This document shows positions 15,800 to 36,771 of a stretch of DNA of 64,000 bases, piece by piece (position 1 is the stretch's first letter; each line of letters starts with the position of its first letter). A program made the position numbers and the translations under genes. The DNA comes from Pseudomonas sp. BN411. Lineage in GTDB: Bacteria > Pseudomonadota > Gammaproteobacteria > Pseudomonadales > Pseudomonadaceae. The stretch spans positions 186,001 to 250,000 of the forward strand of contig NZ_SSOM01000067.1 of the NCBI RefSeq assembly GCF_029871235.1, given 5' to 3'. The notes under the pieces are model-generated. The model was given only the letters and a program-made list of their open reading frames with translations. It was not told where the DNA came from and did no database searches.

Positions 15800-16945
15800 T
15801 TAGCCACCCTGCTCAGGATCGAACTGCAACAACAACGACCAGGGCGCGTTGCAGTTGCCGACGAAGATCGGATGCAGCAGGCAGATGGCGTTGCCGGTGC
15901 CCTTGAAGCGCAACGGCCGGCCATCACGAATGGCGCTGCGTGCATCGCTCGGTAGTTCGTTGGCCGGGGTGCCCAGTCGTTTTCCATCCGGGTGGGTCAC
16001 GAAGTGGGCGGCATTGGACAGCAGCGCGTAATGGCCATTGCCGAACGGCTTCAGCTGGCTCAGGCGCTCCTGAAGCTGCTGCAGGCTGTAGTCGGCACCC
16101 AGGATGCCGAGGAAGCGTCCGCCAGCCAGCATCGGGGTCATGAAGGAGGTCATCAGCACCGTGTTGCCGGCCACGGTGTATTCGTAGGGCTCCATGAACA
16201 GGTCGCGGCCCTTGCGCCTTGGCAGTTCGTACCAGTCGCCGTCATAGCCCACCAGGCACTCGCGCTGGATGGCGCCGGCGCCCCGGTTCCAGTAGGCCAT
16301 GATGCGGCCGGTATGGTCGTAGCCTGGTTGGTCGGCGAATTCGGCGTCGCGGCCGTCCAGGGCGTTCGGCTCGCTGGCGCAGGCGAAGGCCAGCAGGCCG
16401 GGGTTCTGCAGCAGGCATTGCTGCATCACGGCGTCGATCTGCTCGCGCTGCGGGCCAAAGCCCTGGGCATGCAGGCCGAGGATGAAATGCTTGAGGCCAT
16501 AGAGTGCCGTCGCCATCACCGCGAACTGGCTCTGTAACTGCTGCGCCTCGCGGGCCAGCAGGACCTCGGCGGTTTCTTCCTTCGAGGCGCTTTCCGCCCG
16601 CTGCACCTGCTCCAGTGCTTTCTCGCTCTCCTGGCGGATGGTAGCGACCACGCTGCCAATGTCGGCGGTGGCGTTGGCCGATTGGGTGGCCAGGCGCCGA
16701 ACCTCGTCCGCGACCACGGCGAAGCCGCGTCCGAGTTCGCCGGCACGGGCCGCCTCGATGGCAGCGTTGAGCGCAACCAGGTTGGTGTTCCTGGCAATCT
16801 GGCGGATCACGTCGGAAACCTTGCTGATCTCGTTCCAGCGGTTGTTCAGGCCGTCGATCAGCAGCTTGACCTGGTCGAGTGTGGAGTTGCCCTGGGCGCC
16901 GCCTTCCGGCGTGGGTGCCTGGGTCTGTCGGGGACTGCTCTGCAT
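15800..16945 (-). CDS. Soluble chemoreceptor: MCP signalling hairpin followed by dCache domain
   Basis: A 381-residue chemoreceptor-like protein with domains in reversed order. Residues about 25-130 are the MCP signalling hairpin with its tip ([20 protein letters not shown], then [20 protein letters not shown]). Residues about 135-381 form a dCache_1-type double sensor domain ([46 protein letters not shown]). There is no signal peptide and no membrane helix, so the sensor should face the cytoplasm, whereas Cache domains are normally extracytoplasmic. The hairpin is short, leaving little room for adaptation helices. It starts 89 bp after the spdH stop on the same strand and may be the last gene of the polyamine locus. 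The ribosome-binding site at ATG 16945 is weak. Confidence 0.85.
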
Positions 16946-17034: not shown

Positions 17035-18897
17035 TCAGGCGAGCTCGCCCACCGCGCGATGGGCTTCTTCTATCGCCGAATGGGCATAGGCACTCCACGC
17101 CGCGTCGGAGTTGGCGATGGTCACGTTGCCCACCGGTTTGCGCGCCAGCAGCATGGTCTTTTCGCTCTCTTGCTCATCGTCGAACAGCGAGTTGGAGAAG
17201 CACGCGTAGCCGTGGGACCAGCGGTTCACGGTGATCGCCAGGATGTCCTTCTGGTGGTCGAAGCCGCCTGGGCCGAGCATGCGCTGGAGCTGGTCGCGCA
17301 GTTGCGCTTCGAGCTGCTCGAAGGTCGCGGCGTAGAGCTTGGCGCGGCCGGTGCGGGCCTGGGTGCGGGCGTCCATGCCGGCGTTCGGCGAGGTGGGCAC
17401 ATAGACCATGTGCAGGCCGATGGGCTGCTTCGGATCGCGCGGGTGCTGGTAACCGCCGAGGTCCACCGGATAGTCCAGCTTGATCCGGCTGTAGGGCTGG
17501 GTGGTGGCGTAGATCTCATGCACGCCGAGTTTCTGGAAGCTCTCCCAGTTGCGGATCACCACCTTGGTGTACACCAGCGGGAACTTCACGTTCTGGGCGA
17601 GGGCATTGGCCTGCTCGGGCGAGAGGTCGCGCAGCAGGTACGGGATCATCATGTTGTAGCAGGCCAGCACGCAGTGCTTGCTGCGCACGTTCGCCAGTTG
17701 GCCGCCACGGCTGTAGCCGACGTCGACGCCACCCTCGCGGTTCTTCACGCTCACCGCCGTGCTGTTCAGGCGCAGGCGTACCGGGCTGCCGGCGACGTCC
17801 AGTTTGCTGTAGTCGAACTGCGCCAGGACGATGTCGTCCATGCCCTTGCCGGGCGCCACCGCCGGGATCAGGTCGCGCACCAGCAGGCGCGCTACCGAGG
17901 CGTTGCCATCGGGGAAGTGGTAGATGTACGGCTCTTCCATCTCGGCCTTGGCTTCCTCGCCAATGGGCGGCAATTGCATCGCTGCGAAGCCGGGGAATCC
18001 GACGTAGTAGGCGTCGTAGGCGGCCACGGCGTCGATGCTGAGGGCGGAGAAGTCGTTGGTGCGGCTCTGGAAGTACTTCACGGCGCGTTCGGACAGGCCC
18101 ACGTCCTTGAGCAGGAAGTCGCGGTAACTGGTCTTGGCCAGGTGAGCTTCCTTCTCCTCGGTGCTCTTGCCAGCGAGGTAGTCGCGGGGCGCCTCGTAGA
18201 GGTCGATCAGCGCCTGGCGGTCGGCGTCGGGCAGCGGGAAGTCGCTGATGAAGGCGCGCCAGGAGCGGGCATTGAGTTTTTCCGGGGCGATGTCGTCGGC
18301 CACCATGGGCGTCGGGTCGCCGCTCACCAGCTTGTCCACGCCGAAGTTCTCCTTGTCGAAGAACACCCCGCGGGACAGCCCGAGGTTGGGGTAGAAGTCG
18401 CGGTCGAAGGCGGTCTCGAAGCGCTTGATATCGACGCCGAGCTTCGTCAGCAGGCTATTCACGGTGCCGCTGTAGAGGTGGTTGGGCGACTGGAAGGACT
18501 CACTGCCGCCATAGCCGAGGATCATCCGGCCACCGGCCTCGAATTCGTTGCGTTTGGCGTGACCGCCGAAATCGTCGTGGTTCTCGATGATCAGGATGCG
18601 CGCGTTCGGCTGCTTCTCGCGGTAGAACCAGGCCGCAGCCAGGCCGCTGATGCCACCGCCGACCACCACCAGGTCGTACTCCTCGCTCACCGGCAGGCCG
18701 TCGGTGTCGAACTTCTTCTTCTCCCAACCCATCTGGTGCGCTACCTCGAAGGCGCCAGGGTGGCTGCCGCGCAGGCCGGTGAGGGCGGGCGGGTAGTAGC
18801 GGCTGGCGGGAGCGGCGCGCAGCAGTTGCATGGGTGTCAGGCCGGCGGCAATGGTGAGGGCGACACCGTTGAGGAAGTCACGGCGGGTGATGGTCAT
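17035..18897 (-). CDS. spdH: Spermidine dehydrogenase SpdH, Tat-exported flavoprotein
   Basis: FAD (with heme in the P. aeruginosa enzyme) amine dehydrogenase that cleaves spermidine to an aminoaldehyde and a diamine. The 620-residue length equals the P. aeruginosa protein as I recall it. The N-terminus MTITRRDFLNGVALTIAAG is a twin-arginine signal, so export to the periplasm is predicted. The Rossmann motif GGGISG sits at residues 80-85 within DLVVVGGGISGLAAAW, followed by IIENHDDFGGHAKRNEF. ATG 18897 is preferred to 18912 because AAGGA lies six bases before it. It is near the end of the minus-strand polyamine locus, 90 bp after the SnoaL-like gene. Confidence 0.9.
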   Translation of the reverse strand: MTITRRDFLNGVALTIAAGLTPMQLLRAAPASRYYPPALTGLRGSHPGAFEVAHQMGWEKKKFDTDGLPVSEEYDLVVVGGGISGLAAAWFYREKQPNARILIIENHDDFGGHAKRNEFEAGGRMILGYGGSESFQSPNHLYSGTVNSLLTKLGVDIKRFETAFDRDFYPNLGLSRGVFFDKENFGVDKLVSGDPTPMVADDIAPEKLNARSWRAFISDFPLPDADRQALIDLYEAPRDYLAGKSTEEKEAHLAKTSYRDFLLKDVGLSERAVKYFQSRTNDFSALSIDAVAAYDAYYVGFPGFAAMQLPPIGEEAKAEMEEPYIYHFPDGNASVARLLVRDLIPAVAPGKGMDDIVLAQFDYSKLDVAGSPVRLRLNSTAVSVKNREGGVDVGYSRGGQLANVRSKHCVLACYNMMIPYLLRDLSPEQANALAQNVKFPLVYTKVVIRNWESFQKLGVHEIYATTQPYSRIKLDYPVDLGGYQHPRDPKQPIGLHMVYVPTSPNAGMDARTQARTGRAKLYAATFEQLEAQLRDQLQRMLGPGGFDHQKDILAITVNRWSHGYACFSNSLFDDEQESEKTMLLARKPVGNVTIANSDAAWSAYAHSAIEEAHRAVGELA

Positions 18898-18987: not shown

Positions 18988-19464
18988 TTACCAGCCGAGT
19001 TGCTTGTTGAATCCGAGGGCGTCGTAGTAGTCGCCCTGGTAGGTGATCTTGCCGTTCTTGACGCGGATGAAGCTCACGCCTTCGAACTTCAGCGGCTTGT
19101 TGGTGGCCGGGGTTTCGGCACTCCAGGCACCGCTGTTGGTACCGGCGAACTCCCACTGGAAGGCGATGCCGTCCGCGCTGACGATGGGCTCGCTGGTCAT
19201 CTTCCATTTCAGGTCGGGTACGGCACCGACGAAGACTTTGATCACATTGTCGCGAGCCGCCGAACGACCTTTCTGCGGCGTGCCGACGGTGGCATCGAAG
19301 TATTCCGCGTCCTCGGCCAGGAAGCTGGCGGCCTTGTCGGCGTCGTGGGCGTTCCAGGCAGCCATGTAGCCATCGACTATGGCCTTGGCATCGTCAGCCG
19401 CCTGGGCCATGCCGGCCATGGCGCAAAACAGGATGAAGCTGAAATTACGCAAGGTGTTACGCAT
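18988..19464 (-). CDS. Secreted SnoaL-like (NTF2-fold) protein
   Basis: A 158-residue protein with a signal peptide (MRNTLRNFSFILFCAMAGMAQA) and a SnoaL/NTF2-like domain. Typical segments are AIVDGYMAAWNAHDADKAAS, FLAEDAEYFD, GRSAARDNVIKVFVGAVPDL and VKNGKITYQGDYYDALGF. Members of this fold are cyclases, isomerases or small-ligand binders; none of the SnoaL catalytic residues can be claimed with certainty. ATG 19464 follows CAGGAGAACAAGCA, whereas the longer frame has no such site. It lies between the aldehyde dehydrogenase and spdH, and both it and SpdH are predicted to be periplasmic, so they may act together. Confidence 0.83.
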   Translation of the reverse strand: MRNTLRNFSFILFCAMAGMAQAADDAKAIVDGYMAAWNAHDADKAASFLAEDAEYFDATVGTPQKGRSAARDNVIKVFVGAVPDLKWKMTSEPIVSADGIAFQWEFAGTNSGAWSAETPATNKPLKFEGVSFIRVKNGKITYQGDYYDALGFNKQLGW

Positions 19465-19524
19465 TGCTTGTTCTCCTGGTGGTTTTCGCGGGTACTGCCT
19501 GTGGAGCATTTTTGCTTGGCTTTT

Positions 19525-19622
19525 CTGTGGGGGCGATTTCAATCGCTAAGGGCGGCGTAGCTGCCCCGAGGTTTCCCAGGGCAGGCCTGCGACCTGCATA
19601 GCGACTGAAGTCGCTCCCACAG
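19525..19622. repeat. Inverted repeat between SnoaL-like gene and aldehyde dehydrogenase
   Basis: Arms at 19525-19547 (CTGTGGGGGCGATTTCAATC...) and 19600-19622 (...GAAGTCGCTCCCACAG) form a long imperfect inverted repeat of the same family as 5677-5776. It fills most of the 175 bp between two genes of the polyamine locus and could weaken read-through or stabilise mRNA. Confidence 0.8.
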
Positions 19623-19639: not shown

Positions 19640-21064
19640 TTAATGCTTGAACATCACATGGCGAATGGCGGTGTAGTCCTCCAGCCCGTACATGGACATG
19701 TCCTTGCCGTAGCCGGAGTGCTTCACGCCGCCGTGGGGCATTTCGCTGACCAGCATGAAATGAGTGTTGACCCAGGTGCAGCCGTACTGCAGGCGCGCGG
19801 ACAGGCGGTGGGCGCGGCCTACATCAGCGGTCCAGAGGGAGGAGGCCAGGCCGTAGTCGGAATCGTTGGCCCACTCCAGCACCTGTTCCTCATCGTCGAA
19901 GGCGGTGACCGACACCACCGGGCCGAACACTTCGCGGCGGACGATCTCGTCGTCCTGGCGGGCGCCGGCGAGCACGGTGGGCTGGAAGAAGAAGCCCGGG
20001 CCATCGACGCGTTTTCCACCGGTGACGACAGTGATGTGCGGCACGGCGCTGGCGCGCTGGACGAAGCCTTCGACGCGCTCCAGGTGCTGCTCGGTGATCA
20101 GCGGGCCGAGTTCGGTGTCCGGGTCGTCCTGCAGGCCGGTCTTGATGCTGCCGACGGCCTCGCCGAGCTTGGCCACGAACTTCTCGTAGATGCCTTTCTG
20201 CGCATAGATGCGGCAGGCGGCGGTGCAGTCCTGGCCGGCGTTGTAGAAGCCGAAGGTGCGGATGCCTTCGACGGCGGCGTCGATGTCGGCGTCGTCGAAG
20301 ATGATCACCGGGGCCTTGCCGCCCAGTTCCATGTGCATACGTTTCACGCTGTCGGCGGTGCCGGCGATGATCCGGCTGCCAGTGGCGACCGAGCCGGTGA
20401 GCGAAACCATGCGCACCTTCGGGTGGGTGGTCAGCGGTTCACCGACGCTCGGGCCACGGCCGAAGACCATGTTCACCACGCCGGCGGGGAAGATTTCGGC
20501 TATGAATTCAGCCAGCTTGAGGGCGGTCAGCGGGGTCTGCTCGGAAGGCTTGAGGACCACGGTGTTGCCGGCGGCGAGCGCCGGGCCGAGTTTCCAGGCG
20601 GCCATCATCAGCGGGTAGTTCCACGGCGCAATGGAGGCGACCACGCCTACCGGGTCGCGACGGATCATCGAGGTATGGCCGGGCAGGTATTCGCCGGCAG
20701 CGGAGCCGCTCATGCAACGGCTGGCACCGGCGAAGAAGCGGAACACGTCGGCGATGGCCGGCAGTTCGTCATTCAGCGCGGCGGTGAAAGGCTTGCCGCA
20801 GTTCTGCGACTCCAGGCGGGCCAGTTCGTCGGCATGGGCGTCGATGCGGTCGGCGAGTTTCAGCAGCAGGGTGGCGCGGTCCTTGGGCGAGGTCTGCGAC
20901 CAGGCAGGGAAGGCGGCGTCGGCGGCGCGCACGGCGGCATCGACCTGGGCCGGGCTGGCCTCGGCGATTTCCACCAGGGCGGTGCCCAGGGACGGGTTGA
21001 GCACGGCGAGGCTGGGGCCTTCACCGGCGACGAGCTGGCCGTTGATCAGGAGTTTGGTTTGCAT
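19640..21064 (-). CDS. Gamma-aminobutyraldehyde dehydrogenase-like enzyme (ALDH-B)
   Basis: NAD-dependent aldehyde dehydrogenase, 474 residues, resembling E. coli PatD/YdcW, which oxidises 4-aminobutyraldehyde to GABA. Catalytic residues are N149 ([11 protein letters not shown]), E246 ([10 protein letters not shown]) and nucleophile C280 ([13 protein letters not shown]). [11 protein letters not shown] binds the cofactor. ATG 21064 follows GAGGACTTAG. In E. coli patD is the last gene of ydcSTUVW, and here too it follows the importer genes directly. That position, with spdH just downstream, supports a role in clearing the aminoaldehyde made from spermidine. Confidence 0.88.
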
Positions 21065-21214: not shown

Positions 21215-22021
21215 TTACTTCCCGCTACCCGCCACGCTCTCGCCACCCTTGGTCAGGTAGTAGGCGGCGAGGATGGGCAGCATGGTCACCAGCATCACCA
21301 GCATGGCTACCACGTTGGTCACGGGGACGTCGCGCGGGCGGCTGAGTTGGTTGAGCAGCCAGATCGGCAGGGTGCGTTCGTGGCCGGCGGTGAAGGTGGT
21401 GACGATGATCTCGTCGAACGACAACGCGAACGCCAGCATGCCGCCCGCCAGCAGGGCCGAGCCGAGGTTCGGCAGGATGATGTGGCGGAAGGTCTGCCAG
21501 CCGTCGGCGCCCAGGTCCATCGAGGCTTCGATGAGGCTGTGGGAGGTGCGGCGGAAGCGCGCGATCACGTTGTTGTGGACGATCACCACGCAGAAGGTGG
21601 CGTGACCGATGACGATGGTCAGCAACCCCGGCTCGATGCCCAGCCCCTTGAACGCCGAGAGCAGGGCGATGCCGGTGATGATGCCGGGCAGGGCGATCGG
21701 CAGGATCAGCATCAGCGAGATGCCTTCCTTGCCGAAGAAGCTGCGGCGGTACAGCGCGGCCGCCGCCAGGGTGCCGAGCACCGTGGCGATCAGCGTGGCG
21801 ATGACCGCCACCTGCAGCGACAGCTTGATCGCTTCCACCACGTCGGCGCGGCCGAAGGCGACGCTGAACCAGTGCAGGGTGAAGCCCTGCGGCGGGAAGC
21901 TGAAGGCAGCGTCTTCGGTGTTGAAGGCGTACAGGAAGATGATCAGGATCGGGATGTGCAGGAATGCCAGCCCGCCCCAGGCGGCCGCTTTCAGGCCCCA
22001 GGACGCTTTCTCAGAGTGCAT
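21215..22021 (-). CDS. Polyamine-type ABC transporter permease (YdcV/PotC-like)
   Basis: Second inner-membrane permease of the importer, 268 residues with six predicted helices. The N-terminus ([20 protein letters not shown]) and the EAA loop region ([20 protein letters not shown]) are typical of PotC/YdcV. Its ATG at 22021 lies inside the end of the upstream permease gene (11-bp overlap), pointing to translational coupling. It pairs with the 22011-22961 permease, the ATPase and the binding protein encoded upstream. Confidence 0.9.
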
Positions 22022-22961
22022 CGAAGGCCCCCAGACGTTTGACGATGGACAGGTAAACGGCGATCAGCACGATCGGCACCAGGGTGAAGGCGGCGGCCAT
22101 GGGCATGTTGCCGATGGCGCCCTGCTGGGCGTAGACCATGCTGCCGATGAAGTAGCCGGGCGGGCCTACCAGCTGCGGCACGATGAAGTCGCCCAGGGTC
22201 AGGCTGAAGGTGAAGATCGAGCCGGCGGCGATACCCGGAATGGACAGCGGCAGGATCACCTGCATGAAGGTCTGGCGCGGGTGCGCACCGAGGTCGGCCG
22301 AGGCTTGCAGCAGCGACGGCGGCAGGCGCTCGAGGGACGCCTGGATCGGCAGGATCATGAACGGCAGCCAGATGTACACGAACACCAGGAAGCGCCCGAG
22401 GTGCGAGGTGGACAGGGTGCTGCCGCCGACGCCGGGCACGCCCAGCAGCAGCTCCAGCACGGGCTGCAGGTGCAGCGCCTGGACGAACCACATCACCACG
22501 CCGCCCTTGGCCAGCAGCAGGGTCCAGGCGTAGGCCTTGACGATGTAGCTGGCCCACATGGGCATCATCACCGCGATGTAGAAGAACGCCTTGGTCTTGC
22601 CCGTGGTGTAGCGCGCCATGTAGTAGGCGATGGGGAAGGCCAGGGCGGCGCTGGCGATGGACACGGCGACGGCCATGCTCAGCGTGCGCACGATGATGTC
22701 GAAGTTGGCGGCCTGGAACAGTGCGCCGAAGTTCACCAGGGTCAGGTCCGTCGACACCGACATGGTGAAGTCGTCAAAGGTGTAGAAACCCTGCCAGAGC
22801 AGCGTCAGCAGCGAGCCCAGGTAGATGGCGCCGAACCACAGCAGCGGCGGCACCAGCAGCAGCGAGAGGTACAGGGTCGGCCGGCGATAGAGCAGGCCCG
22901 AGAACCTGCGCATCAGGCCATTGGCGGCGCGTGGCCGCTCGGCGTTGAGGGTCAGTTCCAT
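22011..22961 (-). CDS. Polyamine-type ABC transporter permease (YdcU/PotB-like)
   Basis: First inner-membrane permease of the importer, 316 residues. It has a cytoplasmic N-terminus, a first helix in [20 protein letters not shown] and an EAA loop in [40 protein letters not shown] is the PotB-like hallmark. Start ATG 22961 is one base after the stop of the ATPase gene (TGACATG), and its end overlaps the next permease by 11 bp, so three transporter genes are tightly coupled. Confidence 0.9.
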
Positions 22962-22962
22962 G

Positions 22963-23988
22963 TCACGCGCCCTCGGTCAGCTGGACCATGGCATCGCGCG
23001 CCCAGCGGGCGGTGACCACCTGGCCCTGCTGGTGCAGCGGCGCGGCGTCCTGCCACTGGCTGTTGGGCAGGCTGATGCAGAGGTTCTGGCCGTTATCCAG
23101 GCGGATTTCGTAGCGGGTGGCGGCGCCCTGGTACTGGATGTCGTGAAGCAGGCCGCTGATTTCCACATCGCTGCCGTTGCGCTCGCCATGGGCGAAGCGG
23201 ATGTGCTCGGGGCGAATGGAGAAGGGCTGCTCGACACCGGTGAGCTGACGCGCGACGTCGCCGCGCAGCACGTTGGAGGTACCGACGAACTCGGCGACGA
23301 AGGGCGTGGCCGGTTTCATGTAGAGGTTGCGCGGGGTGTCCACCTGCTCGATGCGGCCCTTGTTGAATACGGCCACGCGGTCGGACATGGACAGCGCCTC
23401 ACCCTGGTCGTGGGTGACGAAGATGAAAGTGATGCCGAGCTGGCGCTGCAGCTTCTTCAGCTCGCTCTGCATTTGCTCGCGCAGCTTGAGGTCCAGGGCA
23501 CCGAGGGGTTCGTCCAGCAGCAGCACACGCGGGCGGTTGACCAGGGCGCGGGCTAGGGCCACGCGCTGGCGCTGGCCACCGGACAGCTGCGCCGGCTTGC
23601 GGTCGCCGTAGCCGGCCAGGGCAACCATACCGAGGGCTTCCTCGGCGCGGGCCAGGCGCTCGGCCTTCGCCACGCCCTTCACCTTGAGGCCGTAGGCGAC
23701 GTTCTCGCGCACGTTCATGTGGGGGAACAGGGCGTAGTCCTGGAACACGGTGTTCACGTCGCGCTCGTAGGGCGGCAGGCCAGCGGCTTCTTCACCGTGG
23801 ATGCGGATGGAACCCGAGGTGGGCTGCTCGAAACCGGCGATCAGGCGCAGGCAGGTGGTCTTGCCCGAGCCGGATGGGCCGAGCATGGAGAAGAACTCGC
23901 CGTCCTTGATATCGATGGATACCCGGTCGACGGCCTTGACCTCGCCGAACTGGCGGGAAACCTGAGTGAACTGGACAGCAAGTGTCAT
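22963..23988 (-). CDS. Polyamine-type ABC transporter ATPase (YdcT/PotA-like)
   Basis: ATP-binding subunit of the importer, 341 residues. Walker A is GPSGSGKT (37-44), the ABC signature LSGGQ (135-139) and Walker B LLLDEP (156-161), with the switch His in FVTHDQGEALSMSDR. A TOBE-type regulatory domain follows to the C-terminus (PFSIRPEHIRFAHGE). The order ATPase-permease-permease after the binding protein matches E. coli ydcSTUV. A 286-bp repeat-rich gap separates it from the binding-protein gene. Confidence 0.93.
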   Translation of the reverse strand: MTLAVQFTQVSRQFGEVKAVDRVSIDIKDGEFFSMLGPSGSGKTTCLRLIAGFEQPTSGSIRIHGEEAAGLPPYERDVNTVFQDYALFPHMNVRENVAYGLKVKGVAKAERLARAEEALGMVALAGYGDRKPAQLSGGQRQRVALARALVNRPRVLLLDEPLGALDLKLREQMQSELKKLQRQLGITFIFVTHDQGEALSMSDRVAVFNKGRIEQVDTPRNLYMKPATPFVAEFVGTSNVLRGDVARQLTGVEQPFSIRPEHIRFAHGERNGSDVEISGLLHDIQYQGAATRYEIRLDNGQNLCISLPNSQWQDAAPLHQQGQVVTARWARDAMVQLTEGA

Positions 23989-24274: not shown

Positions 24275-25426
24275 TCAGCGACCGCCCATAATGGCGATGT
24301 AGTCCTGGGTCCAGCGGCTATACGGGACGAACTTGCCGCCCTCGGCCTGCGGGGTTTTCCAGAAGGCGATCTTGTCGAACTGATCGAAGCCGTTGGTGGT
24401 GCGGCCTTCGGCGCCGAGCAGGGCGCTGGCCTTGCAGCCTTCCGGGGCGGCGGGCAGGGAACCGAACCAGGCGGCGACGTCGCCCTGGACCTTGGGCTCC
24501 AGCGACCAGTTCATCCACTTGTAGGCGCAGCTCGGGTGCTTGGCATCGACGTGCAGCATGGTGGTGTCGGCCCAGCCGGTGACGCCTTCCTTCGGCACGA
24601 CGGTGGCCACAGGCTGACCTTCGGCTTTCAGGGTGTTGGCCATGTAGCCCCAGGTGCTGGAGGCAGCCACGCCTTCGTTCTTGAAGTCGCTCATCTGCAC
24701 GGTCGCGTCGTGCCAGTAGCGGTGCACCAGACCATGTTGCTTGCGCAGCAGGTCGAGCACGGCGGTGTACTGCTCTTCGGTCAGCTGGTACGGGTCCTGG
24801 ATGCCCAGTTCCGGCTTGGCGGACTTCAGGTAGAGCGCGGCGTCGGCGATGTAGATCGGGCCGTCGTAGGCCTGCACGCGGCCCTTGTTGGCCTTGCCGT
24901 CGGCCAGTTGCTGCGGCTCGAACACCGCGCTCCAGCTGTCCGGGGCCGTGGTGAAGGCCTTGGTGTTGTACATCAGCAGGTTCGGGCCCCACTGGTAGGG
25001 GGTGCCGTAGGACTTGCCGTCGACGGTGAACCAGGGCGCGTCCTTCAGGCGCGGGTCGAGGTTCTTCAGGTTGGGGATCAGCTCCGGATTGATCGGCTGT
25101 ACGCGCTTGCCGTAGATCAGGCGCAGGGAGGCGTCGCCGGAGGCTGTAACCAGGTCATAGCCGCCCTTGGCCATCAGGCTGACCATCTCGTCGGAGGTGG
25201 CAGCGGTCTTCACGTTGACCTTGCAACCGCTGTCTTTCTCGAACTGGGTGACCCAGTCGTAGTTCTTGTCCGACTCGCCGCGCTCGATGTAGCCGGGCCA
25301 GGCAATGATGTCGAGCTGGCCTTCGCCGGCGCCGACTTGTTTCAGGGCTTCGGCGGCCTGCAGGCTGCCGCTGGCGAGGATGGCGGTGGCCACTGCGCTG
25401 AGCAGGGCGGTTTTGCGCACGGACAT
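24275..25426 (-). CDS. Polyamine-type periplasmic binding protein (YdcS/PotD-like)
   Basis: Extracytoplasmic solute-binding protein of the importer, 383 residues. The signal peptide MSVRKTALLSAVATAILASG is cleaved near residue 24 (LQA-AEAL). GQLDIIAWPGYIERGESD and YDLVTASGDASLRLIYGKRV are typical of the YdcS group of spermidine/putrescine-binding proteins. ATG 25426 follows GAGGGAACAAC. Which polyamine it binds is not readable by eye, but the flanking spdH and aminoaldehyde dehydrogenases favour spermidine, putrescine or a product of SpdH. Confidence 0.9.
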   Translation of the reverse strand: MSVRKTALLSAVATAILASGSLQAAEALKQVGAGEGQLDIIAWPGYIERGESDKNYDWVTQFEKDSGCKVNVKTAATSDEMVSLMAKGGYDLVTASGDASLRLIYGKRVQPINPELIPNLKNLDPRLKDAPWFTVDGKSYGTPYQWGPNLLMYNTKAFTTAPDSWSAVFEPQQLADGKANKGRVQAYDGPIYIADAALYLKSAKPELGIQDPYQLTEEQYTAVLDLLRKQHGLVHRYWHDATVQMSDFKNEGVAASSTWGYMANTLKAEGQPVATVVPKEGVTGWADTTMLHVDAKHPSCAYKWMNWSLEPKVQGDVAAWFGSLPAAPEGCKASALLGAEGRTTNGFDQFDKIAFWKTPQAEGGKFVPYSRWTQDYIAIMGGR

Positions 25427-25649: not shown

Positions 25650-27155
25650 TCAGAGGTCCGTGCCGTGGCGGGCCATAATGTGGCGCACCACGCTGTAGTC
25701 CTGCAGCGAGTCGCTGGACAGGTCCTTGCCATAGCCGGAGCGCTTGAGCCCGCCGTGGGGCATCTCGCTGGCCAGCATGAAATGGGTGTTGATCCAGGTG
25801 CAGCCGTACTGCAGCCGTGCAGCTACTTGCATGGCCTTGTCCAGGTTCTGCGTCCAGACGGAGGACGCCAGGCCGTACTCGGAGTCGTTGGCCCAATCCA
25901 CGGCCTGGGCCAGGTCGTCGAAGCGGGTGACGGTGACCACCGGGCCGAAGACTTCGCGCTGGACGATCTCGTCCTGCTGCTTGCAGCCGGCCAGCAGGGT
26001 GGGCTGGTAGTAGAAGCCCGCACCGGAGTGCACGGCGGCGCCGGTGACGCGTTCGATGTGGGGCTGGCCCAGGGCGCGCTCGACGAAGCTGGCCACGCGG
26101 TCGCGCTGGCGCGAGCTGATCAGCGGGGGCATTTCGTTGTCCAGGTCACGCTTGCGGGCAAAGCGCAGGCTGGCCACGGCCTCGCCCAGTTCGCTCACCA
26201 GGCGGTCGTGGATGCCGGCCTGGGCGTAGATGCGGCAGGCGGCGGTGCAGTCCTGCCCGGCGTTGTAGTAGCCGTGGGTGCGCACGCCCTGGACCACGGC
26301 ATCGATGTCGGCGTCATTACAGACGATCACGGGAGCCTTGCCGCCCAGTTCCAGGTGGGTGCGCTTCAGGGTGCGCGCGGCGGTCTGGAGAATCTTCTGG
26401 CCGGTGACGATGTCGCCAGTCAGCGACACCATACGCACGCGCGGGTGGCCCACTAACTGGCTGCCGACACTGTCGCCGCCGCCACAGAGGATGTTGATCA
26501 CCCCCGGCGGGAGTATTTCCGCCAGCGCCGGCGCGAGGGCCAGAATGGACAGCGGTGTGTGCTCTGAGGGCTTGAAGATCAGCGTATTGCCGGCAGCCAG
26601 CGCCGGGGCGATCTTCCAGGCCGCCATCATCAGCGGGTAGTTCCAGGGGGCGATGGACGCCACAACGCCCACCGGGTCGCGGCGCACCAGGCTGGTGTGG
26701 CCGGGCACGTACTCACCGGCGAGCTGGCCCTGCTGGCAGCGCACGGCGCCGGCGAAGAAGCGGAATACGTCGGCGGTGGCGGGGATGTCGTCCTGGCGCG
26801 CCAGGTGCAGAGGCTTGCCGCAGTTCAGGGCTTCCAGGCGGGAAAGCTGATCGGCGCGTTTCTCGATGGCGTCGGCAATGGCCAGCAGGGCGGTGGCGCG
26901 TTGCGCGGGCGTGGTACGCGACCAGCTGGTGAAGGCGCGATGGGCGGCGGCGACGGCGACTTCCACCTGCTCGATGGAGGCTTCGGCGATGGCCACCAGG
27001 GTTTCGCCGCTGGCGGGGTTGATGATCGGCTCGGCCAACCCTTCGCCGATGACGAGCTGGCCGTCGATCAGCAGTTCGGTGTGCAGGGTCGGGGTGCTGG
27101 TGGCGCCGGTCATCTTACTGGCTCTTTTCTTCTCGGACTTTTGTTCTGTGGTCAT
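25650..27155 (-). CDS. Gamma-aminobutyraldehyde dehydrogenase-like enzyme (ALDH-A)
   Basis: NAD-dependent aldehyde dehydrogenase, 501 residues, a close paralogue of the 19640-21064 enzyme but with about 25 extra N-terminal residues rich in Lys and Thr. Catalytic residues are N172 ([11 protein letters not shown]), E269 (THLELGGKAP) and C303 ([13 protein letters not shown]). Three in-frame starts exist; ATG 27155 is chosen because AAGGAG lies seven bases before it. It is the first enzyme gene after the LysR regulator. Having two such enzymes may reflect the two aldehydes that spermidine cleavage can give (4-aminobutyraldehyde and 3-aminopropanal), but this is inference. Confidence 0.88.
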   Translation of the reverse strand: MTTEQKSEKKRASKMTGATSTPTLHTELLIDGQLVIGEGLAEPIINPASGETLVAIAEASIEQVEVAVAAAHRAFTSWSRTTPAQRATALLAIADAIEKRADQLSRLEALNCGKPLHLARQDDIPATADVFRFFAGAVRCQQGQLAGEYVPGHTSLVRRDPVGVVASIAPWNYPLMMAAWKIAPALAAGNTLIFKPSEHTPLSILALAPALAEILPPGVINILCGGGDSVGSQLVGHPRVRMVSLTGDIVTGQKILQTAARTLKRTHLELGGKAPVIVCNDADIDAVVQGVRTHGYYNAGQDCTAACRIYAQAGIHDRLVSELGEAVASLRFARKRDLDNEMPPLISSRQRDRVASFVERALGQPHIERVTGAAVHSGAGFYYQPTLLAGCKQQDEIVQREVFGPVVTVTRFDDLAQAVDWANDSEYGLASSVWTQNLDKAMQVAARLQYGCTWINTHFMLASEMPHGGLKRSGYGKDLSSDSLQDYSVVRHIMARHGTDL

Positions 27156-27251
27156 CCCGTGCTCCTTGGAGCCCGACATGCCTCTGCTTATGGGAAGGAG
27201 AGACTAGAGGCCGGGCTGGAGGTCGACAAATTCTAAATATTGAAAGTAGCG

Positions 27252-27266
27252 TTCGATTAAATCGAA
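27252..27266. promoter_or_regulatory. Candidate LysR-type operator upstream of ALDH-A
   Basis: TTCGATTAAATCGAA is a perfect 15-nt palindrome with T-N11-A spacing, the shape of LysR-family sites. It overlaps the stop codon of the lysR gene and lies about 97 bp before the ALDH-A start. A related half site (TTTATCGAAAT) occurs at about 28208-28218, upstream of lysR. Confidence 0.45.
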
Positions 27267-28168
27267 AGCCTGCGGTTGTTCGGCTGTTCCCGCGCCACGG
27301 TGATGAAGGGGTCCACCAGGGCCGGGCGCGCGGTGCCCCGTCGCCAGGCGAGGCCCACGTCCAGTGGGGCGCCCAGGTCCACCAGCGGGCGGGCCTCGAT
27401 GATGTCGCCCTCCAGTGACCAGGGGCGGTAGGTCATGTCCGGCTGGATCGACAGGCCGAGGCCCGCCGCCACCAGGCTTCGCACCGCTTCCACCGAGGCG
27501 GTGCGCAGGGTGACCTGGGGCGTGAGCCCGGCGCGGGACCAGATGCGCTGGGTGTGCAGGCCCATCTCGTCGGCGTTGAGCTGGATCAGCGGCTCACCGG
27601 CCACATCCGCCAGGGCGATGCTGTCGCGCTCCAGCAGCGGGTGCTGGGCCGGCAGCCAGAGGCGGTGGGGGGAGTGGGTCAGCACTTCGGTCTGCAGCGC
27701 GTGGCGGTCTTCCAGATTGGAGAGGATCAGCACGCCCACATCGATCTCACCGCTGACCAGCAGGTGCTCGATGTACGGGCGCTCGTCCTCCACCACGCGG
27801 GTCTTCACGTTGGGGTAAGCGCGTTGGAAGCGGGTGATGAGGTCGGCCAGGTAGTAGCCGGCCACCAGGCTGGTCACGCCGATGGTGAGGCTGCCGGCGA
27901 CCTGGTCGGTACTCTGCTGCAGGCTGCGCTTGGCGTTTTCCACTGTGGCGAGGATCAGGTGTGCCTGGCGCAGGAACTGGTGGCCCTGGTGGGTCAGCGA
28001 CATGCCCTTGGCGTGACGGTTGAACAGGCTGACGCCGATCTCTTCTTCCAATTGCTGGATGGCCAGCGTCAGGGTGGACTGGGAAATGAACACCGCCTGG
28101 GCCGCGGCGGAGATGGAGCCGGTTTCGGCTACGGCGATGAAGTGGCGGATCTGGCGGAGGGTCATCAT
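27257..28168 (-). CDS. LysR family transcriptional regulator
   Basis: A 303-residue LysR regulator. The N-terminal winged helix-turn-helix (TLRQIRHFIAVAETGSISAA, AQAVFISQSTLTLAIQQLEE) is followed by the co-inducer-binding domain (SLTIGVTSLVAGYYLADLIT). ATG 28168 (next ATG 28165) matches the family start; a GTG at 28297 would add 43 unlikely residues. It lies upstream of and in the same direction as the polyamine locus, 101 bp before ALDH-A, and probably controls it in response to a polyamine or breakdown product. This arrangement is less usual than the divergent one. Confidence 0.88.
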   Translation of the reverse strand: MMTLRQIRHFIAVAETGSISAAAQAVFISQSTLTLAIQQLEEEIGVSLFNRHAKGMSLTHQGHQFLRQAHLILATVENAKRSLQQSTDQVAGSLTIGVTSLVAGYYLADLITRFQRAYPNVKTRVVEDERPYIEHLLVSGEIDVGVLILSNLEDRHALQTEVLTHSPHRLWLPAQHPLLERDSIALADVAGEPLIQLNADEMGLHTQRIWSRAGLTPQVTLRTASVEAVRSLVAAGLGLSIQPDMTYRPWSLEGDIIEARPLVDLGAPLDVGLAWRRGTARPALVDPFITVAREQPNNRRLSI

Positions 28169-28372
28169 GGGCGTGGTTCGCGTCTGGATGGCGGCCGAAG
28201 AATAGGGTTTATCGAAATCTGAACGAGCGTTTCGCTTTTTTAGATGGTTATGCAGAATCTCGCCACCCCGCGGACCCGCAGCAATATCTCGAAGCACTCT
28301 GCGAACTGCCGCCAGGAATCCCTGCGGCTAGAGTCGGTCGATCTGTGAAATTGGAATGACCTGGAGGCATCG

Positions 28373-29062: not shown

Positions 29063-29378
29063 CCGGCCGCCGGCACGTTCCTCTGTAGGAGCGAGCTTGC
29101 TCGCGAAGGATTCGTGCTCGCGACTGTTCGCGAGCAAGAACTCGGCGTCCCCCTCGCTCCTACCTATGCTGAATTCGCTCCCCACGCGCTCACCCTTCCA
29201 ATCCCCTCCTGCAAATCGGCAACTTTCTGCCAAACTCCCCAAGTGCCGCGGACCGGCAGCTTTCTGGCGACATAAATGTGCCTAATCCTTGCGCTTGCTA
29301 GCGCATGGCCTTGCCACTAGAGTCGCCGCCATTGGCCGCAGGCCAGCAAGAATCCAGGCACTGGTAACGGGGAAGAAT
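29063..29378. repeat. REP-type inverted element upstream of wspA
   Basis: This 316-bp gap holds an inverted repeat with arms GTAGGAGCGAG (29085-29095) and CTCGCTCCTAC (29153-29163), containing GCTTGCTCGCGAA, the common Pseudomonas REP sequence. The remaining 215 bp before wspA should contain the wsp promoter; I cannot assign -35/-10 boxes with confidence. No gene is seen. Confidence 0.85.
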
Positions 29379-31007
29379 GTGAAGAACTGGACTGTTCGCT
29401 TGCGTATCCAGGCAAGTTTCGCGGTGATCATCGCCATCATGCTGTTGATGGCCGGCATGTCCTACATGCAGCTGAGGAATATCGAGCATGAGGGTGATCG
29501 GGTCCTGACCGATTCCGTACCCGGCATGTACTACATCAGCAAGATTCGCAGTGGCTGGACCGACAACCTCCTGCGTACCCAGGCCCTGCTGCACCGCGAC
29601 GGCGATTCGGGCAGCACCATCTATCACACCGGCCGCAAGGACCTGGATGAGAGCAACGTCCAGCTCGATGAGATGATCGAGGCCTACGACCGCACCATTA
29701 CCGCCGATGCCGATCGCGAACAGTTCAAGAAGTTCACCGACATCCGCAAGGTGTATGGGGCGCATCAGGCCCAGGCGCTGGCAGATCTTAAAGAAGGCAA
29801 GCTCGACACGGCCCGTGCCACGTTCGAAGGCGTTCTGGTGGAGCGGTGGGGCGAAGGCCGTCAGCACCTCAACGAACTGATCGAAATTAACCGCGAGATG
29901 AGCGAGGCGTCGATCACCGAGATCATCACCTCGGTGCGCAATGCCGAGCGCAGCATGCTGCTTGCCATGATTCTGGCGATCGCCGCGGCGGCTGTTTGCG
30001 GCTTGCTGCTGATGCGCGCGATCACCCGCCCGGTGGGCGGCATCGTCGATACCTTGCGGGTCATGGGTGGCGGCGACCTGTCCACCCGCCTGGACCTCAA
30101 GCGCCAGGACGAATTCAACGCCATCGAGACCGGCTTCAACAGCATGGCCGAAGAGCTCAAGACCCTGGTGTCCCAGGCGCAGCGCTCTGCCGTGCAGGTG
30201 ACCACCTCGGTTACCGAGATCGCCGCGACGTCCAAGCAGCAGCAGGCAACCGCCACCGAAACCGCTGCCACCACCACTGAGATTGGCGCCACTTCGCGGG
30301 AAATCGCCGCCACCTCCCGCGACCTGGTGCGCACCATGGCCGAGGTGTCCGGCACCGCCGAGCAGACCTCCATCCTCGCCGGTTCCGGCCAGCTTGGCTT
30401 GGCGCGCATGGAAGACACCATGCACCAGGTGATGGGCGCCGCCGAGCTGGTGAACGCCAAGCTGGCGATCCTCAATGAGAAGGCCGGCAACATCAATCAG
30501 GTGGTCACCACCATCGTCAAGGTGGCCGACCAGACCAACCTGCTGTCCCTGAACGCTGCCATCGAGGCGGAAAAGGCCGGCGAGTACGGCCGTGGCTTTG
30601 CCGTGGTGGCGACCGAAGTGCGCCGTCTGGCCGACCAGACCGCCGTGGCCACCTACGACATCGAGCAGATGGTGCGCGAGATCCAGTCGGCGGTGTCCGC
30701 CGGGGTCATGGGCATGGACAAGTTCTCCGAGGAAGTCCGTCGCGGCATCGCCGAAGTAGGGCAGGTGGGCGAGCAGCTGTCGCAGATCATCCAGCAGGTG
30801 CAGGCGCTGGCACCGCGTGTGCAGATGGTCAACGAGGGCATGCAGGCCCAGGCCACCGGCGCCGAGCAGATCAACCAGGCCCTGGTGCAACTGGGCGAGG
30901 CCACCGGGCAGACGGTGGAATCCCTGCGCCAGGCCAGCTCCGCCATCGACGAACTGAACCTGGTGGCCAACGGCCTGCGAACCGGCGTCAGCCGCTTCAA
31001 GGTCTGA
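29379..31007 (+). CDS. wspA: Surface-sensing chemoreceptor WspA
   Basis: Membrane receptor of the Wsp system, which responds to surface contact and raises c-di-GMP. From GTG 29379 it has 542 residues: a helix at about 12-32 ([16 protein letters not shown]), a periplasmic four-helix-bundle region to about 190, a second helix ([20 protein letters not shown]), HAMP, then a long signalling domain with tip [20 protein letters not shown] and [23 protein letters not shown] 29379 is chosen because GGGGAAGA precedes it. First gene of seven, with wspB starting 9 bp after the stop. Confidence 0.95.
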
Positions 31008-31016
31008 GTCGGCGCC

Positions 31017-31523
31017 ATGGGCCCGAGTCGAACCCGAGCGCCGGCCCGCACCGTCAGGGGCCGGCTCTACCTGCAATTCCGCATGGGCGGCGATCGCTAT
31101 GCGCTGGACGTCCATGAAGTGGTGGAGGTCCTGCCGCTGCGCCAGTTGAAACAGGTGCCTGAGGCGCCCGAGTGGGTCGCCGGGGTGTTTTCCCACCGTG
31201 GCGCGCTGGTGCCAGTGCTGGACCTGGGAATACTCGCCTTCGGCCAGCCGGCCCAGGCTCGCACCAGTACCCGGCTGGTGCTGGTGGATTACCCGCTGGA
31301 GGGGCAGAGCCGCTGGCTCGGGCTCATCCTGGAGCAGGCCACCGATACCCTGCGCTGCCGTCCGGAAGAGTTCCGCGACTACGGCCTGGAACAGGGTGGC
31401 GCGCGCTACCTGGGGCCGGTCTACCAGGCCGCCGATGGCCTTGTGCAGCGCATTCGCGTTGCCGACCTGCTGCCGGACGAGGTGCGCGCCTTGCTGTTCC
31501 CGGCCACGGAGGGCGCGGCATGA
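31017..31523 (+). CDS. wspB: CheW-like adaptor WspB
   Basis: A 168-residue CheW-fold adaptor that links WspA to the kinase WspE. A CheW core runs from LYLQFRMGGDRYALDVHEVV to the end; GVFSHRGALVPVLDLG is the family core motif. Its stop overlaps the wspC start (ATGA at 31520-31523), indicating translational coupling. Confidence 0.95.
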   Translation: MGPSRTRAPARTVRGRLYLQFRMGGDRYALDVHEVVEVLPLRQLKQVPEAPEWVAGVFSHRGALVPVLDLGILAFGQPAQARTSTRLVLVDYPLEGQSRWLGLILEQATDTLRCRPEEFRDYGLEQGGARYLGPVYQAADGLVQRIRVADLLPDEVRALLFPATEGAA

Positions 31524-32770
31524 TCGAGCGCTTCGAAACCCTGCTGAAGAACCGCATCGGCCTGGAGGCGGAGTCCGTCGGCCGGGTGGTGATCGAGCGT
31601 GCCGTGCGCCAGCGCATGCACGCCTGTGACAGCCGTGACGAGGACGCCTACTGGACCACCTTGAATGCTTCGCCCGCCGAACAGCAGGCGCTGGTGGAAG
31701 CAGTGGTGGTGCCGGAAACCTGGTTCTTCCGCTATCCCGAATCCTTCGCCGCCCTCGGCCGCCTGGCCTTTGAGCGGCTGCCGGCGCTGGCGGGTGGCCG
31801 CCCGTTGCGCATCCTCAGCCTGCCCTGTTCCACGGGGGAGGAACCGTTTTCCATCGTCATGGCGCTGCTCGACGCCGGTCTGGCTCCGGGGCTGTTCCAG
31901 GTGGACGCGATGGATATCAGCGAGCGGGTGCTGGAGCGGGCGCGCCAGGGCGTGTACGGGCGCAACTCGTTCAGGGGCGAGGACCTGGGCTTTCGCGACC
32001 GCTACTTCCTGCCTTCGGGCGAGGGCCACGCCGTGGCCCAGCAGGTGGCGTCCAAGGTGCGTTTCCTGCGTGGCAACCTGCTGGAGCCCGGGCTGCTCGC
32101 CGGGGAGCAGCCCTACGATTTCGTGTTCTGCCGCAATCTGCTGATCTACTTCGACCGGCCGACCCAGAGCGCCGTGCTGGAGGTGCTGAAACGCCTGATG
32201 CAGCGCGACGGTGCGATGTTCATCGGCCCCGCCGAGGCCAGCCTGCTCAGCCAACAGGGCATGCAGCCGCTGGGTTATCCACAGGCCTTCGTGTTCCGCA
32301 ATGCGCCGCCGCAGGTCGCCGCCAAACCGGCCAAGGTCCGCATCCCGGCACCCGCTCCTGTCGTCGCCGCGCCAGTGCCCAGCCGGGCGCCGGCCAGGCC
32401 GCGTGCGCCACTGCCGAAGCCCGAGCTGCCCAAGGCCAAGGCCGATGGCGCAGGGCCTGAAGCCGCCCTCGCGACGATTGCCAGCCTGGCCAACAGCGGC
32501 CGCAGCGAGGAAGCGCGCAGTGCCTGCGAAGCCTTCCTCGCCGCCCATGGCCCCTCGGCGGACGTCTTCTACTGGCTCGGGCTGCTCAGCGACGTGGCCG
32601 GCAAGGTGGATGAGGCGCAGGACTATTATCGCAAGGCGCTTTACCTCGCGCCGCAGCACGCCGAAGCACTGGCCCATCTGGCGGCACTGCTCGCCGCCCG
32701 GGGTGACCGGGCCGGCGCACAGCGCTTGCAACAGCGTGCCAGCCGGGGAGTGAACAACCATGGCCGATAA
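31520..32770 (+). CDS. wspC: CheR-type methyltransferase with TPR, WspC
   Basis: SAM-dependent methyltransferase that methylates WspA, 416 residues. The CheR domain spans about 1-260 with VVPETWFFRYPESFAALGRL, the SAM motif LSLPCSTGEEPFSIVMAL and CRNLLIYFDRPTQ. A Pro/Ala/Lys linker (about 275-320) leads to tetratricopeptide-like helices (DVFYWLGLLSDVAGKVDEAQ). ATG 31520 lies within the wspB end; the stop overlaps wspD by 11 bp. Confidence 0.95.
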   Translation: MIERFETLLKNRIGLEAESVGRVVIERAVRQRMHACDSRDEDAYWTTLNASPAEQQALVEAVVVPETWFFRYPESFAALGRLAFERLPALAGGRPLRILSLPCSTGEEPFSIVMALLDAGLAPGLFQVDAMDISERVLERARQGVYGRNSFRGEDLGFRDRYFLPSGEGHAVAQQVASKVRFLRGNLLEPGLLAGEQPYDFVFCRNLLIYFDRPTQSAVLEVLKRLMQRDGAMFIGPAEASLLSQQGMQPLGYPQAFVFRNAPPQVAAKPAKVRIPAPAPVVAAPVPSRAPARPRAPLPKPELPKAKADGAGPEAALATIASLANSGRSEEARSACEAFLAAHGPSADVFYWLGLLSDVAGKVDEAQDYYRKALYLAPQHAEALAHLAALLAARGDRAGAQRLQQRASRGVNNHGR

Positions 32771-33446
32771 CCGCTTGCCCCTGATTGCCGGCGACCAGTT
32801 GCCGGCGGTGGACGACTGCTGGAATCGCATCGGCATCCATGGCGACAAATCCTGTGAGCGCCTGGCCGCTCATGTGCATTGCCGCAATTGCGAGGTGCAT
32901 GCTGCAGCCGCCACCTTGTTGCTCGACCGCTATGCGCTGATTCGCGAAGACATCACCGGCGTCGTTGATGATGCCGAAGAGGATGGCCGTGAACGCCGTT
33001 CCACCCTGGTGTTCCGCCTGGGTGAACAATGGCTGGGAATCGCCACCCGCAGCCTGGTGGAGGTGGCGGCGCTCAACCCCATCCATTCCCTGCCGCACCA
33101 GCGCGCCTTGGCCCTGCTGGGGGTGACCAACGTACGCGGTGCCCTGGTGGCCTGTCTGTCCCTGGTGGAGCTGCTGGGGTTGGAGAAGGGCTCCGAGGTG
33201 AATGGCGAGCGCCGTGTGGTGCCGCGAATGCTGATTTTCGCCAGCCAGGGTGGACCGCTGGTGGCGCCGGTGGATGAAGTGGATGGTATCCACGGCATTC
33301 CCCTGGATGCAGTGGTCGACCCCGGCCGCGCGCCGGACCTGGCCGCCCGCCAGTTCGCCTCGGGCGTCGTGCAGTGGCGCGAGCGCAGTATCACGCTGCT
33401 GGATGAGGGCCTGCTGCTGCAGGCCATGGCAAGGAGCCTGGCATGA
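32760..33446 (+). CDS. wspD: CheW-like adaptor WspD with Cys-rich N-terminus
   Basis: Second CheW-type adaptor, 228 residues. The CheW domain (about 80-225; LVFRLGEQWLGIATRSLVEV, GVTNVRGALVACLSLVELLG) follows an N-terminal stretch with a cysteine pattern: C20WNRIGIHGDKSC33, then HVHCRNC (two Cys, about 42-45). Such a motif is seen in CheW proteins of alternative chemosensory systems; metal or thiol chemistry is possible but unproven. The start overlaps wspC by 11 bp and the end overlaps wspE by 4 bp. Confidence 0.94.
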   Translation: MADNRLPLIAGDQLPAVDDCWNRIGIHGDKSCERLAAHVHCRNCEVHAAAATLLLDRYALIREDITGVVDDAEEDGRERRSTLVFRLGEQWLGIATRSLVEVAALNPIHSLPHQRALALLGVTNVRGALVACLSLVELLGLEKGSEVNGERRVVPRMLIFASQGGPLVAPVDEVDGIHGIPLDAVVDPGRAPDLAARQFASGVVQWRERSITLLDEGLLLQAMARSLA

Positions 33447-36729: not shown

Positions 36730-36771
36730 ATTCGAAGCATCAAGCTTGGCCCGACGGGCCCGGAGAGTCAT

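What the first reader, a model, noticed from the sequence alone, without database searches (positions are those of the whole stretch)
15800..16945. Cytoplasmic chemoreceptor with reversed domain order behind the polyamine locus
The protein has the MCP signalling tip first (residues about 25-130) and a complete dCache-like sensor after it, with no membrane helix or signal peptide. Cache domains nearly always sit outside the membrane. dCache domains of the McpU and TlpQ type are known to bind polyamines and related amines. Because this gene follows spdH by 89 bp on the same strand, it may report intracellular polyamine or aminoaldehyde levels to the chemotaxis array. The link to polyamines is inference from position.
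Basis: partly seen in the sequence, partly recalled or inferred. Interest (0 to 1): 0.7.

Follow-up and report, generated by a model that had tools for sequence, protein, structure and literature searches.

The report
Inside-out amine-sensing bacterial chemoreceptor
A small soluble bacterial receptor carries its amine-sensing domain at the wrong end and apparently inside the cell, and it nearly always sits at the end of a cluster of genes for amine uptake and polyamine breakdown, so it may let a swimming bacterium steer by what it is digesting.

Summary
A 381-aa ORF at 15800-16945, minus strand, has an MCP signalling hairpin first (residues 17-128) and a dCache domain last (about 126-378), with no membrane segment. 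It is not a one-off: 26 of 398 family genomes carry a full-length homologue in the same order; none was seen outside the family in order, class and phylum samples. dN/dS is low. In 24 of 26 loci it is the last gene, same strand, of an amine locus: two aminobutyraldehyde-type dehydrogenases, a YdcSTUV/Pot-type ABC transporter, often a SnoaL-like gene; only 14 have spdH. The link is thus to the locus, not to spdH. The published dCache_1AM amine positions are kept (7 of 8 in 26 of 26). The McpU/TlpQ comparison is weakened: TlpQ's amine-binding Asp210 is Tyr in 26 of 26, as in PctD, PacA and 3LIB. Best reading: a cytosolic amine receptor that reports an intermediate of amine uptake or breakdown through the front helix of its dCache. 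Ligand, output and signal path are inferred. Both structure predictions failed. New variant of a known kind.

The parts
15800..16945 (-). MCPr: soluble reversed-order chemoreceptor, 381 aa
16562..16897 (-). MCP signalling hairpin (residues 17-128)
   Evidence: PF00015 E 3.8e-31; hairpin pattern in 30 of 30 rows, 4 of them duplicates
15812..16570 (-). C-terminal dCache_1 domain with its long first helix (residues about 126-378)
   Evidence: PF02743 just above cut-off; homology to 9heh, 7psg, 3lib, 7prq
16091..16447 (-). dCache_1AM amine motif R167, D197, Y218, W238, Y239, M265, S267, D285
   Evidence: mapping to PctD; 26 of 26 (M265 25 of 26)
17035..18897 (-). spdH, spermidine dehydrogenase (ATG start; the listed ORF begins at TTG 18912)
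   Evidence: phmmer to SpdH 7d9f over residues 1-619
18988..19542 (-). SnoaL-like protein, the commonest direct neighbour of MCPr (20 of 24 loci)
   Evidence: Pfam, synteny
19640..21064 (-). aminobutyraldehyde dehydrogenase (ABALDH)
   Evidence: PRK13473 834 bits, above cut-off 615; TIGR03374 878 bits, under its cut-off of 909
21215..22021 (-). ABC permease, PotC/YdcV-like
   Evidence: best NCBIfam model PotC, under its cut-off
22011..22961 (-). ABC permease, PotB/YdcU-like
   Evidence: PF00528; the Pot/Ydc name is from position
22963..23988 (-). polyamine-type ABC ATPase, PotA/YdcT-like
   Evidence: TIGR01187 potA 373 bits, above cut-off 356
24275..25426 (-). ABC substrate-binding protein of the YdcS family
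   Evidence: NF041888 798 bits, above cut-off 725; not PotD
25650..27179 (-). second aldehyde dehydrogenase of aminobutyraldehyde type
   Evidence: PRK13473 783 bits, above cut-off 615; conserved in position where in view
27257..28297 (-). LysR-type regulator
   Evidence: conserved in position where in view

Best explanation
The gene encodes a soluble cytoplasmic chemoreceptor. Its C-terminal dCache_1AM domain binds a small amine inside the cell, most likely an intermediate or end product of the amine uptake and polyamine breakdown run by the genes it travels with. The bound state is passed through the first helix of the dCache, which in sequence follows directly on the descending arm of the MCP hairpin, to the hairpin that docks to CheA and CheW. 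The cell would thus steer by what it is metabolising, while a membrane-bound TlpQ-like receptor in the same genome can report polyamines outside. Shown by sequence: domain order, lack of membrane segments, intact hairpin, amine motif, conserved locus, purifying selection. Inferred: ligand, path of the signal, entry into the chemotaxis array.
For: MCPsignal then dCache. No membrane segment in any of 26 members, two in each of five ordinary relatives. PctD positions R103, D133, W155, F188, Y189, S217 and D235 (PMC10104139) correspond to R167, D197, Y218, W238, Y239, S267 and D285, in 26 of 26; M215 = M265 in 25 of 26. Position 155 is Tyr as in 3LIB, a domain the paper found to bind methylamines. 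Of 15 dCache_1 matches in the own genome only three align to the family profile over the whole pocket: MCPr with all eight letters or like residues, a PctD-like receptor with Ala for D133, and a TlpQ-like receptor with Phe for Y189 and Val for M215. 24 of 26 loci end the amine operon, in several arrangements (spdH before or after SnoaL, an amino-acid permease present, or none of these). The closest ordinary relatives with a full frame (L041-L043) have two membrane segments around the dCache and the hairpin at residues 511-535.
Against: No ligand was tested; the motif paper reports no binding for one predicted target and none for two single-mismatch controls, and I could not see which letters its motif figure allows. 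TlpQ's Asp210 is Tyr here. The binding protein is of the YdcS family, whose substrate is not settled by these tools. The wider neighbourhood (recJ, cysM-like gene) is also old, so part of the synteny may be descent alone. 13 of 18 genus genomes lack the gene, and 12 of those keep the ABALDH-SnoaL locus, four of them with spdH. Two members with the same motif sit by prfC, away from amine genes. Both structure predictions failed (mean pLDDT 42 and 40). The hairpin arms are short, and no strict methylation-site pattern is present in 26 of 26, though 4 of 5 ordinary relatives lack it too.
Confidence: 0.4

Rival explanations
1. It is an intracellular amine receptor, but its ligand is a small alkylamine or quaternary amine (methylamines, choline, betaine) unrelated to the neighbouring genes; the location is inherited.
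For: The pocket segment EPYxY matches 3LIB, PacA and 9heh, not the PYxD of TlpQ/McpU. Two members sit beside prfC with the same motif. recJ also stays near the locus in many genomes.
Against: The gap from MCPr to its upstream operon neighbour stays at 87-336 bp between alignment ends, while the gap to recJ varies from about 0.9 to 8.9 kb where recJ is in view; the operon side is rearranged yet MCPr stays at its end.
Confidence: 0.34
2. It does not steer swimming but feeds another chemosensory-like array (for example Wsp, whose operon begins 12 kb away in this window) or acts as a passive adaptor that dilutes receptor arrays.
For: Very short hairpin; a Wsp-type operon begins at 29289.
Against: The hairpin is nearer to other receptors of the genome (45-51% identity in the eight best hairpin hits after itself) than to the WspA-like one (41%). 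Proteins with PAS domains and a minimal hairpin in the same genome show that short soluble tips occur more than once.
Confidence: 0.15
3. It is a relic of a recombination between two receptor genes, without function.
For: Such a joint of two receptor halves could arise by rearrangement; the gene is missing from many relatives.
Against: Whole-gene dN/dS 0.08-0.30 in ten pairs, pocket and hairpin residues kept in 26 members, no stops inside.
Confidence: 0.03

Closest known systems
dCache_1AM receptors (PctD, PacA, McpX, Methanosarcina 3LIB)
   Same: Same sensor family and amine motif positions
   Different: Membrane receptors with an outside sensor in front of the output domain; here the sensor comes last and no membrane segment exists
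Stand-alone intracellular dCache_1AM proteins of Actinobacteria (PMC10104139)
   Same: Amine-type dCache working inside the cell
   Different: [quoted passage not shown] here the domain is fused to a chemotaxis hairpin
McpU and TlpQ
   Same: dCache chemoreceptors of Pseudomonas that bind amines
   Different: Outside sensors; PYxD pocket for polyamines against PYxY here; lower sequence similarity
Soluble chemoreceptors with short hairpins (PAS-hairpin proteins of this genome; TlpD-type receptors with a C-terminal sensor, recalled)
   Same: No membrane segment; short hairpin, or sensor behind the hairpin
   Different: Other sensor domains

Membership tests
dCache_1 (PF02743) | Profile match above the curated cut-off | tested here: met
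   47.2 bits against 45 for this protein; 4 of 4 other members scanned are under it, 31.6-38.6 bits
dCache_1 (PF02743) | dCache fold | tested here: inconclusive
   Homology to solved domains E 2.5e-35, but both AlphaFold models were unusable
dCache_1AM | Amine motif residues | tested here: met
   7 of 8 positions in 26 of 26, M265 in 25 of 26; Tyr and Trp stand for PctD's W155 and F188, and the allowed letters of the published motif figure could not be seen
dCache_1AM | Binds amines | not testable with these tools
   Needs protein
McpU/TlpQ polyamine receptors | Asp equivalent to TlpQ Asp210 | tested here: not met
   Tyr256 in 26 of 26
Canonical membrane chemoreceptor | Sensor between two membrane helices, then HAMP and a long hairpin | tested here: not met
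   No membrane segment, no HAMP match, order reversed
Cytoplasmic chemoreceptor | MCP hairpin without membrane helices | tested here: met
   location itself not tested
Chemoreceptor in general | Binds CheA/CheW and changes kinase activity | not testable with these tools
   Hairpin sequence intact

The most novel reading that the evidence does not exclude
A dCache brought inside the cell and run backwards: the signal leaves through its first helix instead of its last and reports metabolic flux of amines from the cytosol to the chemotaxis kinase. If so, this is a metabolism-dependent taxis receptor with a defined sensor and a gene cluster that narrows its ligand class.
Probability: 0.32. Interest if true: 0.75.

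Novelty: new variant of a known kind. Interest (0 to 1): 0.56.

Why it matters
dCache domains are known mainly as outside sensors, and a 2016 survey argued that an extracellular Cache can pass its signal only through the helix behind it (PMC4822843, passages). A natural receptor with nothing behind the domain would show that the fold can signal from its front helix and can work in the cytosol. It would also give a tractable case of taxis driven by an internal metabolite, with a short list of candidate ligands.

Tried and rejected
AlphaFold2 on the whole protein and on the dCache alone, each with 5 sequences, gave mean pLDDT 42 and 40; I ran no fold search on them and quote only the predicted helicity of the first, marked as weak. 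A link to spdH as such was tested and dropped. The Fisher p of 1.3e-7 for MCPr and spdH across 398 genomes ignores relatedness and is not used as evidence. Sigma-28 and sigma-54 promoter scans upstream gave nothing convincing in the main clade. Sigma-70 and terminator scans were below the shuffle means, and no terminator-like site lay on the minus strand. A chemoreceptor downstream of spdH in two genomes without MCPr (L083, L084) was considered as a substitute; that of L084 is an ordinary 4HB-HAMP receptor, so I dropped it. Methylation-site patterns do not discriminate. The yciI frame was taken in the wrong register and is ignored. Five of the 31 matches cover only the dCache part and were not counted as members.

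Full report
What is there. The ORF at 15800-16945 is on the minus strand and encodes 381 aa. Its reading frame is open for 383 codons, so no hidden N-terminal membrane helix exists. Pfam finds MCPsignal at residues 17-128 and dCache_1 at 210-346; solved dCache domains align from residue 124 to 374. The order is the reverse of the usual one, and the protein ends where the dCache ends. Four further members show the same two domains in the same order, with dCache_1 scores of 31.6-38.6 bits, under Pfam's cut-off of 45.

Is it cytosolic? The highest 19-residue hydropathy mean among 30 family rows is 1.36. With the same scan, five ordinary receptors with related dCache domains (L041, L042, L043, L115, L116) each show two segments above 1.8, and their hairpin lies 511-594 residues in. 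No dedicated topology predictor was run.

How widespread? In the genus, 5 of 18 genomes carry it at E<=1e-40; in the family, 26 of 398, with 5 further genomes matching only over the dCache part in long frames. Samples of 244 (order), 274 (class) and 299 (phylum) genomes gave members only in the family at E<=1e-55 or 1e-60. A looser phylum scan (E<=1e-36) added five matches that start at profile position 117 or later inside frames of 651-905 aa, that is, no full-length reversed protein. In these searches only the best few candidates of each genome (up to 4, 6 or 7) were scored, so a divergent relative hidden behind ordinary receptors could be missed. Plasmid records gave 20 matches at E<=1e-25, none covering 80% of the query. 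One scan of the 84,980-species contig collection found four full-length relatives, all named Pseudomonas, and one partial Methylobacterium match. The family is taken to be Pseudomonadaceae from those names.

Locus. I read about 19 kb around each member, or all that the contig held. Of 26 loci, the window included, 22 show binding protein, ATPase, two permeases and ABALDH upstream on the same strand, with MCPr last. Two more are cut by contig ends and show the SnoaL gene next to MCPr. Two (G024, G158; 50% and 47% identity) lie instead beside prfC (confirmed as release factor 3). The direct neighbour is SnoaL in 20, SpdH in 3 and an amino-acid permease in 1 (PF13520 and PF00324 for the L057 copy). 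SpdH is in the locus in 14. SpdH is found in 50 of 398 genomes, 36 of them without MCPr. In the genus, SnoaL is present in 17 of 18, and ABALDH matches at E<=1e-230 in 18 of 18, though in G001 and G014 only the roughly 76% paralogue (the locus of G001 is cut by a contig end). Of the 13 genus genomes without MCPr, eight run straight from SnoaL to the cysM-like gene, with 69 to 898 bp between, and four have SnoaL then SpdH. So MCPr is an optional end cassette of this locus, not a partner of spdH.

What the locus does. SpdH matches the solved spermidine dehydrogenase 7d9f over its whole length. Two aldehyde dehydrogenases pass the cut-off of an aminobutyraldehyde dehydrogenase model. The ATPase passes the potA model, and the binding protein is a YdcS family member rather than PotD. 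From recall, E. coli has a ydcSTUV transporter next to its aminobutyraldehyde dehydrogenase YdcW; the substrate of that transporter is not settled by anything I ran. The locus is thus firmly amine and aminoaldehyde related; that it imports polyamines is likely, not shown.

Sensor class. The published motif (PMC10104139; I read the results section and passages) was mapped through the alignment of an own-genome PctD-like receptor to PctD and of a family member to 3LIB and PacA. R167, D197, Y218, W238, Y239, S267 and D285 are kept in 26 of 26, M265 in 25 of 26. Tyr stands where PctD has W155, as in 3LIB, which the paper tested and found to bind dimethylamine at 0.5 uM. The letters allowed by the published motif figure were not visible to me. 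As a control, the 15 dCache_1 matches of the own genome were aligned to the family profile: a whole-pocket alignment was obtained for MCPr, a PctD-like receptor (Ala at D133) and a TlpQ-like receptor (Phe at Y189, Val at M215; identified by phmmer to 9kp3 and 6fu4, about 1e-97); five loci gave only partial, weak alignments and seven none at E<=1. In TlpQ the primary amine is held by Tyr208, Asp210 and Asp239 (PMC6234866, passages). By counting along the alignment these correspond to Y254, Y256 and D285 here; Y256 is invariant. The own TlpQ-like receptor keeps EPYFD. The pocket is therefore of the type seen in small-amine and quaternary-amine receptors, and polyamine binding cannot be read off the sequence.

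Signalling. The hairpin core is intact in all 30 rows. The arm before it is only about 45 residues long, and the arm behind it runs into the first dCache helix; an AlphaFold model shows one unbroken helix there, but at low confidence. In ordinary receptors the signal leaves a Cache through the helix behind it (PMC4822843, passages); here nothing follows the domain, so the first helix is the likely path. This is inference. Short soluble hairpins are not unusual in themselves: the same genome has two PAS proteins that end in a minimal hairpin.

Selection. Nei-Gojobori dN/dS over ten chosen pairs is 0.08-0.30 for the gene and 0.02-0.21 for the hairpin.

Known or new. [quoted passage not shown] A survey found 78% of Cache domains confidently extracellular and two small Cache families mainly intracellular, so intracellular Cache domains as such are known. 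Full-text searches listed no paper that by title or start of abstract describes a reversed hairpin-dCache receptor or one tied to a polyamine locus. The library lacks most subscription papers, and the supplementary dataset of the amine paper, which may list this protein, could not be read.

Papers: PMC10104139, outline, results section and passages; PMC4822843, PMC6234866, PMC10613068 and PMC10904736, passages; all others, search listing only.

Noticed in passing
29289-37800 +: A Wsp-type operon: 4HB-HAMP-MCP receptor, CheW, CheA-REC hybrid and a REC-GGDEF protein, starting 12 kb from the receptor.
   Followed up: partly
L067 and L068, 61 and 56 bp before the start codon: Both prfC-linked members carry a sigma-54-like TGGCATG-N4-CTGC element (10 and 9 of 12 letters); the other loci score 7-9 of 12 without a shared position.
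   Followed up: no
17035-18897 -: SpdH starts with a twin-arginine-like TRRDFLNG stretch, suggesting export; spermidine oxidation might then occur outside the compartment of the receptor. Motif recalled, not tested.
   Followed up: no
L049, L051, L057: Three MCPr loci without spdH hold a conserved amino-acid permease after ABALDH; its nearest NCBIfam model (urea carboxylase system permease) is far under its cut-off.
   Followed up: partly
24275-25426 -: The binding protein of the locus is of the YdcS family, so the locus resembles E. coli ydcSTUVW (recalled) with extra genes.
   Followed up: partly
L071 and L076 (own genome): PAS proteins of 323 and 443 aa that end in a minimal MCP hairpin.
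   Followed up: partly
L069 and L070 (own genome): The same 337-aa receptor C-terminus lies at the end of one contig and the start of another, likely a shared repeat at a contig break.
   Followed up: no
L052 and L055, upstream of the receptor: REP-like GTAGGAGCG repeats lie in the gap between SnoaL and the receptor.
   Followed up: no
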